Below are positions 24,473 to 28,429 of a stretch of 34,476 bases of DNA, one piece after another. Position 1 is the first letter of the stretch; every line of letters begins with the position of its first letter. The notes beneath the pieces were generated by a model. It made no database searches. It was not told where the DNA came from and saw only the letters and a program-made list of their open reading frames with translations. Source of the DNA: Pseudomonadota bacterium (lineage in GTDB: Bacteria > Myxococcota_A > Bradymonadia > UBA4248). Where the stretch lies: the NCBI GenBank assembly GCA_017555665.1, contig JAFZFY010000215.1:1-34476 (forward strand), in the 5' to 3' direction. Made by a program: the position numbers and the translations under genes.

Positions 24473-27400
24473 CTATTCGCAGTGGATGCATCCAGCCGGG
24501 CAGGTTTCTGCCGCGTCGCGGCAGTCTTCGGGCGTGGCGTCGTCCCGTATGATCACGGCCTGGCCGTCATCATTGAGGCCGAACGTCTTGTCATCGATAG
24601 AGACGCATGCGCCGCAGGAGAGGCATTTTGCCGTATCGAGCCAGGGGCATTTCTGTGTGCACTCGTCAGGCGCGGGTGCGGTCTGGGGGGCAGCCTCAGG
24701 CATCTGGACTGCCTGAGGCGTTTGTGCGGTCTGGGAGGCAGCCTCAGGCATCTGGACTGCCTGAGGCGCTTGTACGGTTTTGGCATCACGGACCTTTCCT
24801 TCGCCCGCAAGCCCTTCGATATAGGCGGTTTCGTCGCGTATGTCGTCGTTGATATCGGCTGTGTCGTCGGTATCTTGGCCGAGCTGTACGCGCAGTTCAT
24901 GCAGGCATTGTGCGAGCGTGTCTGCCGTGTGCTGGATGAGCTCCTGCGAGGCATCGAAGCGCTGGGCGGCCTGTTCTGCGGCCTTTTGCGTGGCTTCGAG
25001 CTGCTGGAGGTGTCTGGATTCGCGGGCATCTTTGGCAATCTGAAGCTGCGCTTTTGTGGAGAGCGACAGCTCGCGGAGCGTTTTCCATCGCTGCATTCGG
25101 TCGATGCAGGCGTTGACGACATCTCGTGTCATGATGCATTTGCGCAGCGTGGAGTCGACGACACCCCAGATGAACGGGATCTGCGGCTTGTCGAAAGACG
25201 GGGATTTGAGGAATTCGCCGATCTCGATGAGCTCGTCGTTCCAAGCGTCGTTGGGAAGGATGCGGAAATACTTGTGGTAGCCGGGTTCGAGTGCGAGTGC
25301 GTGTGCGAACGTGAAGGTGCCGGGCATCTGTTTGGTGGTGCCGTCGACATCGATATAGGAGAACTGGCAGGTGGGCCAGACCTGGTCGATCTGCGGATTT
25401 TCGTCTACATTGAATCGTTCGACACGGGTTTCGCCGATACTCGGATCATACTGGAACATGGGTGCCGTGCGCGCGTAATGCGCGGCTTCGAGCTGGACCC
25501 GTGCGGGCAGCCGCCATGACCACGTGGGGCATGCGACGACGGTGATGGCGGGGCGAAGCAGGCGGTTCATGCGCGTGAGCGTCGCGACGAGATGTTCGGG
25601 GCGAGCAAGCGAGGATTGCGCGACAAAAGCCTCCCGGAAGGCGGTCGCGAGGTAGCTGAAGCCGGGATCGTAGTTGGAGACGCCGGCGCTCAGATCGCCG
25701 CCCATCGTTTTGGATGTCGATTCGAAGGTGAGCGCGACGATGGGTTTTCCTGCGCGTATCAGGCGTGACAGCGGCGTGAGCTGCGCATAGATCCTGTCGG
25801 TGGTTTCGGCGATGCAGATGACGGGCAGGAGCCTGAGCTCGTCTTCGGAGAGATCCTGCCATGTAAACTGTTCCAGGATATCGGCGTGATAGACAGGATC
25901 GTAGGCGTTATCGATGTCGAGCCGTGCCATGCGCATGGCTTTGAACGCCTCGACATGCTTCTGGCTGATCGCGTCGAAGAGGCCGGTGGCGACAGCGATC
26001 GGCTCTTCGTGGCAGATGCTCCGGACGCGGTCATAGGAGGTCTTGACCTGTATGTCTGGCGGATAGGTGAAGATGAGGTCGTCGGAGGTGTCGAGATGTT
26101 TGAGGAAGGCTTCGAGTGTGTGCAGGGAGTAGGTCATCCTGCGGATGCGTTCGGGATCATGCTGGATGTGCCCTCTGTGCTGGTGCGCGAGGTCTTTTGA
26201 GATTTCGTGGATATCGAGCAGCCCGCCGGCGGCATCGCCGAAAGCGTCGCTGAGCGCAGATTCGGACATGCCGAAAGGCCCGTAGGCATCATCGAGCCTG
26301 AGCGCTTCGCGCAGCTGTGTGATGAGGCCTCGGATATCGGAGCGCACGTCTCGGATCCTGCTTCGCCGGGCGGCTCGGACGGCGAGCACATAGAGATCGA
26401 GCAGCGTGTGCGGATTGAGCCCGATCAGATAACATTCGTCGGAAAGCGCGGTGATGAAATCGCGCAGGCCGGAGCGGATCACGGGTGAGAAGAAGGGATC
26501 TGAGGCCGTGGCTTCTGAAAGCGCTACATCGAGCAGTTTCTTGGCTGGCGTGATGAGCTGGGTATCATCGGAGATTTTTTCGGCGCAAGCCAGGAATGCG
26601 GCCAGGCATCGTTTGACGGCGTCATCCTCGGAGAGATCGCCGAATTTCATCGCGAGCGCGTGATCCAGACGCTGTGTTTGCAGGGATGGATTGCCGGAGA
26701 TGCGCGTCGCGAGCAGGGGGTAATAGTGTTCAGTGTTGAGCGATTGCAGGTAGGGATTGAGCGCGGCAGGGCGTATGGATAGTCCGGGGAGCGGGTGGTG
26801 ATGCGCGTCTGTGGACTGTCCGCGCACGAAGAAGTTGCGGATAATCGTGCGCCATGTCGAGGCTTCTGCGCGGTTGCGGATGCTGGGCTGCATGCGCGGC
26901 AGCTTGATCTGAGGGGCAAAATATGGGTCGAACTGATCGGAAGACTGGATCGATCGGTCGACTTCGCGGACTTCCTGTGCGCCGGTGAGGAGGCGTGCGA
27001 AGGCATCTTGGGAGAGCAGTCGGTTTTGCAGGATTTTTTCGCTGTCGATGTTCACGCCTGTGTGTGTCTGGACGAGCTTGAGCAGTGCGCCGTGCACGAC
27101 GTAGCAGCCGTATCTGTCTACCGTCCTGTATTCGTCGAGCAGGCTTCCGGCGAGGGAGTAGATGCCGATATGCTTTTTTTCGATAAACGTCTGCATAGCG
27201 GGGCTGAATAGCGGCCAGATGGAGGCTTCTTCGACGCTTCTTCCGAGGACGAGGACGAGCGCGTGCTCGGCGAGGTCATGCAGGATATCCTTGATGTCGA
27301 TGAGACCGGGATGTGAGAGGAACAGGACATCGATGGGGCGTTTTTCGCAATCGGGATGTTCATGTGGGGTATTTTCGAGGCCGAGCGTGCTGATCTGCGG

Positions 27401-28429
27401 GTGCGGGCTTTTGACCTGGAAGGCGGAGAGGCCGTTTGTTTTGCTGAGATACGCGGCGAGATCGAAGAGCAGGCCACGGCTCATCTGACCGCCGGGAGCT
27501 GCGCCAATGACAAGGGGATGGCTGTCTTTGGGGCTTGTGAACGTGATGGCATTTTCGATAACGTCCGGGCTGATCTCGAGTGCGAATGCGATGTCTTCGA
27601 TGGCGGTATCGCCGTGCATGTCGATATAGCGGTATCGTTTATTCGCGAGTGCGTGCGCGAGATGGGCGTGCAGGTCGGACTGCTCGAAGGATTCATTTTC
27701 GTCGAGGATGAGGATCAGCTTTTGGTTGACGAAGCATTCGGTGAAACGTTCGGGGAAAGGCCGGATGACTTTGGGGCAGACGTAGAAAGCTTTTCTGCCG
27801 AGTTTTGCGAGCATTGCGGATAGCGCTTTTGCCTCGTCGATATATCGTCCGGACGTGAAGATGCATACCGCCTGTGTGAGGAAAGCGTCCATTTCCGCGA
27901 TATGCATCGGGATGTCGAACCGATCCTTGAAAGCGCACATGCTTTTCGTGATGGTATCGAGGATGAGTGCATCATCGATCACGTCTCTGTTTTTTGAGCC
28001 GATCGGCGTGATGAAGTCGAGCATCTCCTGTGAGATCATGCGAGCGCCTTCGAGCTTGCTGGCGTGCCTGTCATCGATGGAGCAGAGGCCAGGCAGACCG
28101 AGTTTTGCGGCGACATCATGCGCGATGAGGCAGTGATAGACGGCTTCCTGGGCAGAGGTGGCCTGAAGCTCGAAGGGGAGCTTGATCTGCAGGGGGTCGT
28201 AGGGTTTTCGTTCTCGATGGCAGACGAGTGTGGAGGGCATGGAAGGGAGCGCGAAGTCTGTGTTGTTGTCGCAGAGGAGTGCGGCAGCGCGTTGCCCGAG
28301 CATGGCAAAGCCTTCGGCTTCGGCGACGGAGAGCCTTGCGCCGGAACGGCAGATTAGAGCTTCGGAGATGTTGATGTGCCTGCGCGTGGCACGGACGAGC
28401 CATTTGTCTAGCAGTTCAAATGATTCCAT
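24473..28429 (-). CDS. Degenerate pyruvate:ferredoxin oxidoreductase-like protein with ferredoxin tail
   Basis: A 1318-residue relative of the fused PFOR/NifJ enzymes, recognised by order and local similarity. Domain-I-like sequence is seen at about 90-120 (SAQEAVYHCLIAHDVAAKLGLP) and 180-260. A domain-III-like region is at about 305-390 (GGQMSRGLLFDLAAYLSK..SHPGLIDIKDILHDL), and a domain-VI-like region at about 890-970 (YLATAFREAFVAQSSLARPE..AITVVACP). The thiamine-phosphate GDG and N-T-G-G-Q type motifs are not recognisable, and no CxxCxxCxxxCP cluster domain is seen in the middle. The last 58 residues are a one-cluster ferredoxin (Cys1269, 1272, 1275 and 1310 as likely ligands). An Ala/Gln-rich coiled coil and a 16-residue duplication (about 1219-1250) precede it. 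ATG 28429 has a GAGGTGAGG site. Function is unknown; pyruvate oxidation seems unlikely. Confidence 0.7.
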   Translation of the reverse strand: MESFELLDKWLVRATRRHINISEALICRSGARLSVAEAEGFAMLGQRAAALLCDNNTDFALPSMPSTLVCHRERKPYDPLQIKLPFELQATSAQEAVYHCLIAHDVAAKLGLPGLCSIDDRHASKLEGARMISQEMLDFITPIGSKNRDVIDDALILDTITKSMCAFKDRFDIPMHIAEMDAFLTQAVCIFTSGRYIDEAKALSAMLAKLGRKAFYVCPKVIRPFPERFTECFVNQKLILILDENESFEQSDLHAHLAHALANKRYRYIDMHGDTAIEDIAFALEISPDVIENAITFTSPKDSHPLVIGAAPGGQMSRGLLFDLAAYLSKTNGLSAFQVKSPHPQISTLGLENTPHEHPDCEKRPIDVLFLSHPGLIDIKDILHDLAEHALVLVLGRSVEEASIWPLFSPAMQTFIEKKHIGIYSLAGSLLDEYRTVDRYGCYVVHGALLKLVQTHTGVNIDSEKILQNRLLSQDAFARLLTGAQEVREVDRSIQSSDQFDPYFAPQIKLPRMQPSIRNRAEASTWRTIIRNFFVRGQSTDAHHHPLPGLSIRPAALNPYLQSLNTEHYYPLLATRISGNPSLQTQRLDHALAMKFGDLSEDDAVKRCLAAFLACAEKISDDTQLITPAKKLLDVALSEATASDPFFSPVIRSGLRDFITALSDECYLIGLNPHTLLDLYVLAVRAARRSRIRDVRSDIRGLITQLREALRLDDAYGPFGMSESALSDAFGDAAGGLLDIHEISKDLAHQHRGHIQHDPERIRRMTYSLHTLEAFLKHLDTSDDLIFTYPPDIQVKTSYDRVRSICHEEPIAVATGLFDAISQKHVEAFKAMRMARLDIDNAYDPVYHADILEQFTWQDLSEDELRLLPVICIAETTDRIYAQLTPLSRLIRAGKPIVALTFESTSKTMGGDLSAGVSNYDPGFSYLATAFREAFVAQSSLARPEHLVATLTRMNRLLRPAITVVACPTWSWRLPARVQLEAAHYARTAPMFQYDPSIGETRVERFNVDENPQIDQVWPTCQFSYIDVDGTTKQMPGTFTFAHALALEPGYHKYFRILPNDAWNDELIEIGEFLKSPSFDKPQIPFIWGVVDSTLRKCIMTRDVVNACIDRMQRWKTLRELSLSTKAQLQIAKDARESRHLQQLEATQKAAEQAAQRFDASQELIQHTADTLAQCLHELRVQLGQDTDDTADINDDIRDETAYIEGLAGEGKVRDAKTVQAPQAVQMPEAASQTAQTPQAVQMPEAAPQTAPAPDECTQKCPWLDTAKCLSCGACVSIDDKTFGLNDDGQAVIIRDDATPEDCRDAAETCPAGCIHCE
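24677..24772 (-). repeat. 48-bp tandem repeat with internal palindrome in the PFOR-like gene
   Basis: Two near-identical 48-bp units (24677-24724 and 24725-24772) encode a duplicated 16-residue A-V-Q-M-P-E-A-A type linker before the ferredoxin domain. Each unit contains a perfect 9-bp inverted repeat (CCTCAGGCA...TGCCTGAGG, seven-base loop), so the coding strand can form two consecutive hairpins. Confidence 0.85.

What the first reader, a model, noticed from the sequence alone, without database searches (positions are those of the whole stretch)
24473..28429. PFOR relative that has lost its catalytic motifs but gained a ferredoxin tail
The protein follows the domain order of pyruvate:ferredoxin oxidoreductase, yet the thiamine-binding motifs and the internal two-cluster ferredoxin domain are not recognisable. 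A single-cluster ferredoxin is instead attached at the far C-terminus through a coiled coil and a duplicated Ala/Gln linker. This looks like a repurposed enzyme, perhaps a redox-sensing or scaffold protein. Its retention at 1318 residues without a frameshift argues for function.
Basis: partly seen in the sequence, partly recalled or inferred. Interest (0 to 1): 0.7.

Follow-up and report, generated by a model that had tools for sequence, protein, structure and literature searches.

The report
Dead PFOR turned ferredoxin carrier
This large bacterial protein descends from an enzyme that oxidises pyruvate, has lost the catalytic parts but kept a built-in ferredoxin, and is found almost only in genomes that also carry one particular 2-oxoacid-oxidising enzyme (KorAB), so it most likely carries electrons away from that enzyme.

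Summary
An intact 1318-aa gene lies on the minus strand at 24473-28429. It is under strong purifying selection (dN/dS 0.13) and conserved in all six sampled species of the genus.

The catalytic claim holds too. No thiamine motif and no internal Fe-S clusters remain, and only the C-terminal ferredoxin passes Pfam cut-offs. PFOR homology is weak directly but firm through intermediates: profile-profile probability 100%, domains I, II, III, VI and ferredoxin collinear.

One interpretation is wrong. The ferredoxin was not gained. It is ancestral, present on intact ~1650-1700-aa PFORs encoded between rnfB and rnfC across the phylum.

The window protein is "gene B" of a phylum-wide operon korA-korB-B-rnfB-A-rnfCDGEA. 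Two operon forms exist: an active A with the ferredoxin beside a tail-less B, or an inactive A that keeps internal clusters beside an inactive B that keeps the ferredoxin. In 14/14 operons with both genes visible, exactly one carries the tail. B tracks one KorB subfamily (26 of 27 genomes; 284 searched; Fisher 5e-30), not Rnf or canonical PFOR.

Best explanation: a non-catalytic PFOR descendant whose tethered ferredoxin takes electrons from KorAB. Descent is well supported; the electron role is inferred. In this genus B is unlinked from korAB and A is lost. Structure prediction failed.

The parts
24473..28429 (-). gene B orthologue: non-catalytic PFOR-derived protein with C-terminal ferredoxin, 1318 aa
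27980..28390 (-). remnant of PFOR domain I (residues 14-150), lacking the YPITPSS segment; Ala31 at the position aligned with the TPP-activating Glu
   Evidence: hhalign 88% (intact A) and 95% (degenerate A); alignment
27560..27952 (-). PFOR domain II (transketolase-C-like), residues 160-290
   Evidence: Pfam PFOR_II E 0.0033 sub-threshold; hhalign 97-98%
27134..27352 (-). remnant of PFOR domain III (gamma), residues about 360-432
   Evidence: hhalign 95%
25052..26005 (-). degenerate TPP domain (PFOR domain VI and following), residues 809-1126; GDG and NTGGQ lost; most conserved part of the protein
   Evidence: hhalign 100%, E 3.7e-50; dN/dS 0.07; boundaries
24860..25087 (-). probable long helix / coiled coil, residues 1115-1190
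   Evidence: aligned with the same region of intact relatives within the full-length alignment, not significant alone; low-confidence helix in the model
24662..24781 (-). Ala/Gln/Pro linker with an internal duplication, residues 1217-1256; duplication specific to this species
24482..24643 (-). single [4Fe-4S] ferredoxin domain, residues 1263-1316; likely ligands C1269, C1272, C1275, C1310
   Evidence: Pfam Fer4_13 E 7e-9; PDB ferredoxins 1rof, 1dax; hhalign 99% to the tail of intact PFORs

Best explanation
The protein is a catalytically inactive descendant of a pyruvate:ferredoxin oxidoreductase that already carried a C-terminal tethered ferredoxin (shown by sequence). It is the orthologue of gene B in a korA-korB-B-rnfB-A-rnfCDGEA operon found across the phylum (shown). 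After duplication the two PFOR copies lost complementary parts: A kept the two internal [4Fe-4S] sites and lost the ferredoxin tail, while B lost the internal clusters and kept the ferredoxin tail (the pattern is shown; the order of events is inferred). B most likely binds the separately encoded KorAB 2-oxoacid oxidoreductase through its dead PFOR body, and its ferredoxin, on a flexible linker and coiled coil, takes the electrons that KorAB releases (inferred). It passes them on: in operon-bearing species to A and then to the Rnf ion pump; in the window genus, which lost A and separated the genes, to soluble carriers or to the unlinked Rnf (inferred). Confidence is about 0.93 for descent and orthology and about 0.55 for the KorAB electron-adapter role; the figure given is for the whole statement.
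For: Collinear homology to intact PFOR+ferredoxin proteins: hhalign 100%, E 4.9e-85 with long B relatives, 9.8e-50 with the window genus alone; null for the reversed control. The intact relatives keep PITPS, GDG, NTGGQ and two internal clusters; the one compared aligns with solved PFORs 6cin and 1b0p at about 1e-78. The C-terminal ferredoxin is present in 9/9 intact A, 0/10 degenerate A and 14/16 B; the two B without it are from genomes of one genus, and in the one whose operon is fully visible (G166, L080) A is intact and carries the tail. In 14 operons with both genes visible, exactly one has the tail. Gene order korA-korB-B-rnfB-A-rnfC recurs in many families. Tree: the window genus nests inside the main B clade (100/99), nearest the operon-borne B of the one other family of its order (92/85). 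Co-occurrence: within the order, KorB* is present in 7/7 genomes with B and in neither of two without. In the phylum, 26 of 27 B genomes have KorB* (score at least 296 bits, next lower 219), 32 KorB* genomes in all, Fisher 5e-30, 12 families with both. Of the six KorB* genomes without a B hit, three have a short B-like protein in the same slot (97.7% to the B core) and the other three break off at a contig end, one inside a recognisable B start. Two genomes keep korA-korB-B without rnf next to it (L089, L090). KorB of the own genome keeps its GDGD...NN TPP motif. Purifying selection is strongest on the dead TPP domain with the region before it and on the ferredoxin.
Against: In the window genus B is not next to korAB or rnf; it sits between a Ser/Thr kinase and a RarA-methyltransferase gene, so the link there rests on co-occurrence alone. 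Co-occurrence across a tree is not independent, and in other lineages could reflect mere co-transfer of an operon. KorAB enzymes elsewhere work with free ferredoxin (general knowledge), so an adapter is not strictly needed. No structure could be predicted, so neither the fold nor a binding surface is seen. The region 490-800 is not recognisable as PFOR on its own. Cluster binding and potential are untested.
Confidence: 0.55

Rival explanations
1. Structural scaffold: B is kept mainly to hold KorAB (or another oxidoreductase) together or at the membrane, and the ferredoxin tail is an accessory, not the main electron path.
For: The most conserved part is the dead TPP domain, 54% invariant columns in 761-1160. 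In some operons a short B-like protein without any ferredoxin fills the same slot.
Against: The ferredoxin ligands are invariant in the genus and the tail has dN/dS 0.07. In every operon with both genes visible, tail-less B occurs only where A carries the tail, so the tail itself seems required once per system.
Confidence: 0.22
2. Redox sensor or regulator: the Fe-S domain reports redox or oxygen state and the PFOR body relays it.
For: A conserved Fe-S domain on a non-catalytic body; a Ser/Thr kinase is divergently encoded next door.
Against: No output domain is found. Elsewhere the gene lies inside a metabolic electron-transfer operon, without that kinase next to it.
Confidence: 0.08
3. B works with the canonical PFOR or directly with Rnf rather than with KorAB.
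For: Sequence descent from a PFOR; operon position next to rnfB in relatives.
Against: G006 of the same family has an rnf cluster and a PFOR piece but no B and no KorB*; G007 likewise has a PFOR piece and neither. Two genomes keep korAB-B apart from rnf. Intact A with Rnf occurs without korAB or B beside it in several genomes.
Confidence: 0.1
4. It still has an unrecognised catalytic function of its own on a different substrate.
For: 1318 aa kept under strong selection; several internal cysteines invariant in the genus (27, 100, 116, 189, 872, 967, 1098, 1108, 1175).
Against: TPP and Mg motifs are replaced and no other enzyme family is found. Those cysteines are not invariant once B of other families is included (only tail cysteines are).
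Confidence: 0.05

Closest known systems
Single-chain pyruvate:ferredoxin oxidoreductase (PFOR, NCBIfam TIGR02176; PDB 1b0p, 6cin)
   Same: Collinear domains I, II, III and VI by profile comparison through intact relatives
   Different: No TPP motifs, no internal Fe-S clusters, no PFOR model reached; extra C-terminal coiled coil and ferredoxin
Monocluster [4Fe-4S] ferredoxins (Pfam PF13370 Fer4_13; PDB 1rof, 1dax)
   Same: Four cluster cysteines and sequence family match
   Different: Tethered to a 1200-aa body instead of free
KorAB / OAFO-type 2-oxoacid:acceptor oxidoreductase (TIGR03710 for KorA)
   Same: Genetic partner in the operon and across genomes
   Different: KorAB keeps catalytic motifs and is separately encoded; B has no detectable catalytic site
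Rnf complex (rnfABCDGE)
   Same: In relatives B lies between korB and rnfB and A between rnfB and rnfC
   Different: No paper found describes 2-oxoacid oxidoreductase genes inside an rnf operon of this layout; in the window genus rnf is elsewhere

Membership tests
PFOR (TIGR02176) | Score over the curated cut-off | tested here: not met
   NCBIfam finds no family at E 0.01
PFOR (TIGR02176) | TPP/Mg motif GDG and NTGGQ, N-terminal YPITPSS | tested here: not met
   Absent in the window protein and all B examined
PFOR (TIGR02176) | Two internal [4Fe-4S] sites (domain V) and proximal cluster cysteines | tested here: not met
   No internal CxxCxxC; aligned cysteines replaced
PFOR (TIGR02176) | Descent: collinear homology over domains I-III and VI | tested here: met
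   hhalign 100% over 1219 columns and by segment; reversed control null
PFOR (TIGR02176) | PFOR fold in three dimensions | tested here: inconclusive
   Two AlphaFold2 jobs with three rows each, pLDDT 34 and 31
Fer4_13 monocluster ferredoxin domain | Score over gathering cut-off and four cluster cysteines | tested here: met
   36.6 bits against 24.5; C1269, C1272, C1275, C1310 invariant
Gene B of the korAB-rnf operon | Phylogenetic placement among operon-borne B proteins | tested here: met
   Main B clade 100/99, sister to B of G008 92/85
Gene B of the korAB-rnf operon | Linkage to korAB and rnf | tested here: not met
   In the own genome korAB, rnf and B lie on different contigs, and B has unrelated neighbours throughout the genus
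Gene B of the korAB-rnf operon | Presence of the matching KorAB in the same genome | tested here: met
   KorB* in 6 of 6 genomes of the genus; KorA read in the own genome
KorAB electron acceptor | Reduction by KorAB and physical contact | not testable with these tools
   Needs purified proteins

The most novel reading that the evidence does not exclude
A and B are two pseudoenzyme halves of one ancestral PFOR that split its iron-sulfur equipment between them and now bridge a KorAB 2-oxoacid oxidoreductase directly to the Rnf ion pump, so that electrons go from 2-oxoacid to the pump inside one complex without free ferredoxin; the window genus keeps a reduced version (B plus KorAB only).
Probability: 0.35. 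Interest if true: 0.82.

Novelty: new variant of a known kind. Interest (0 to 1): 0.62.

Why it matters
Rnf is thought to be fed by freely diffusing ferredoxin. An operon that places a 2-oxoacid oxidoreductase and two PFOR-derived pseudoenzymes, with one tethered ferredoxin between them, inside the rnf genes suggests a dedicated wire from central carbon metabolism to an ion pump. It also gives a clear case of duplicated enzymes losing complementary cofactors, and a testable function for a large, unannotated protein family. The window protein shows that the B half can be kept without A and without rnf next to it, which points to KorAB as its partner.

Tried and rejected
Direct search against PDB sequences: only ferredoxins and weak matches to 2-oxoacid oxidoreductase alpha chains in domain II. 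Idea that the tail was gained: rejected, since intact relatives carry it. Idea that A still exists in the window genus: searched with an A profile; only the canonical PFOR, B itself and short marginal pieces appear. A strict ferredoxin pattern demanding CP or CS missed some tails with CT or CQ; recounted with a looser pattern. Literature searches for the operon found no description; this covers only open-licence papers. Phyla other than the window's own were not tested.

Full report
What is there. Full-length orthologues are present in all five other sampled genomes of the genus (55-77% identity), in the same place between a Ser/Thr kinase gene and a RarA-methyltransferase gene where the contigs reach. 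Two of these orthologues are public records, from a roe deer omasum assembly (RGIG4413) and 'Myxococcales bacterium UBA4248', so the window is very probably from a gut myxobacterium. dN/dS against the nearest orthologue is 0.13 overall and 0.06-0.07 in residues 641-1160 and in the ferredoxin. The gene is under selection to stay functional.

Is it a PFOR relative? By direct search the case is thin: Pfam gives one sub-threshold hit (PFOR_II, E 0.0033), NCBIfam nothing. It becomes firm through intermediates. In a distant genome (G057) a 1702-aa protein carries recognisable POR_N, PFOR_II, POR, Fer4 and TPP_enzyme_C domains, keeps PITPS, GDG and NTGGQ, aligns with solved PFORs at about 1e-78, and ends in the same coiled region and single-cluster ferredoxin. 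A profile of the window family plus long relatives aligns with a profile of seven such proteins over 1219 columns, probability 100%. By segment, domain I gives 88-95%, II 97-98%, III 95%, VI 100% (E 3.7e-50) and the ferredoxin 99%; residues 490-800 are not recognisable alone; a reversed profile gives nothing.

What was lost. The alignment shows the YPITPSS segment missing, Ala31 at the position that aligns with the PFOR glutamate known to activate TPP (which residue that is rests on general knowledge of PFOR, not on a test here), GDG replaced, NTGGQ deleted, and the cysteines of both internal clusters and the proximal CxxC replaced. The ferredoxin tail is ancestral, not gained.

The operon. 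Searching 284 genomes of the phylum with a profile of the family, and reading some 30 neighbourhoods, shows a recurrent order korA-korB-B-rnfB-A-rnfC-rnfD-rnfG-rnfE-rnfA. Another arrangement lacks korAB and has rnfB-A-rnfC and so on with an intact A. Where korAB is present there are two states. Either A is intact and carries the ferredoxin, and the B slot holds a shorter B-like protein without ferredoxin; or A has lost the TPP motifs and the tail but keeps both internal clusters, and B has lost TPP motifs and internal clusters but keeps the tail. In 14 of 14 operons where both genes are visible, exactly one carries the tail. The window protein falls in the main B clade, next to the B of the only other family in its order. 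In the window genus A is absent, and in the own genome B, korAB and rnf lie on separate contigs.

Which partner? B follows one KorB subfamily, here KorB*. Within the order all seven genomes with B have KorB* and the two without B lack it, although G006 has Rnf and both have canonical PFOR pieces. In 284 genomes, 26 of 27 with B have KorB*, against 32 with KorB* in all (Fisher 5e-30, 12 families; not corrected for shared ancestry). Three of the six KorB* genomes without a B match have the short B-like protein; the other three end at a contig edge just after korB, one inside a recognisable B start. The one B genome without KorB* also breaks off at a contig edge on the side where korB would lie. 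Two genomes keep korA-korB-B with no rnf beside it.

Mechanism. KorAB of this type keeps its catalytic motif but no ferredoxin subunit is encoded beside it in the own genome. A dead PFOR body holding a ferredoxin on a long linker is well placed to take electrons from KorB. In operon-bearing species the internal clusters of A could carry them on to RnfB and RnfC. Shown: descent, losses, complementary pattern, co-occurrence, selection. Inferred: binding, electron transfer, direction, and what replaces A in the window genus.

Limits. Other phyla were not searched. Many genomes are fragmented assemblies. The literature library holds open-licence papers only; no description of this operon was found there, and a 2025 review of RNF/NQR (PMC12174285) does not use the word oxoglutarate and mentions pyruvate only twice.

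Noticed in passing
L018:5810-10918, L077, L080, L082, L087, L088, L091, L114, L115: A ~1650-1760-aa intact PFOR with C-terminal ferredoxin encoded between rnfB and rnfC; the one scored (L018) is far below the TIGR02176 cut-off (393 against 911 bits). Apparently an unnamed PFOR class tied to Rnf.
   Followed up: partly
L018:11700-12704, L082:13230-14324, L087:3689-5161: Short proteins (334 aa in L018, which has no family match) in the B slot, homologous to the B core (97.7%) but without ferredoxin.
   Followed up: partly
window:22155-24362 (-): RarA/MgsA-type AAA ATPase fused to a methyltransferase (NCBIfam PRK13341), conserved next to gene B in the genus.
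   Followed up: no
window:28877-30877 (+): Protein with a C-terminal Ser/Thr kinase domain and about 400 N-terminal residues without a family match.
   Followed up: no
window:19111-20964 (-): Exonuclease VII large subunit with about 110 extra N-terminal residues; only 33-51% identical between species of the genus while its neighbours are far more alike.
   Followed up: no
window:24662-24781 (-): The Ala/Gln linker duplication is found in this species only, a recent change in a fast-changing linker.
   Followed up: yes
G000:C52 and G000:C371: The canonical PFOR of the own genome appears to be split over two contigs.
   Followed up: no
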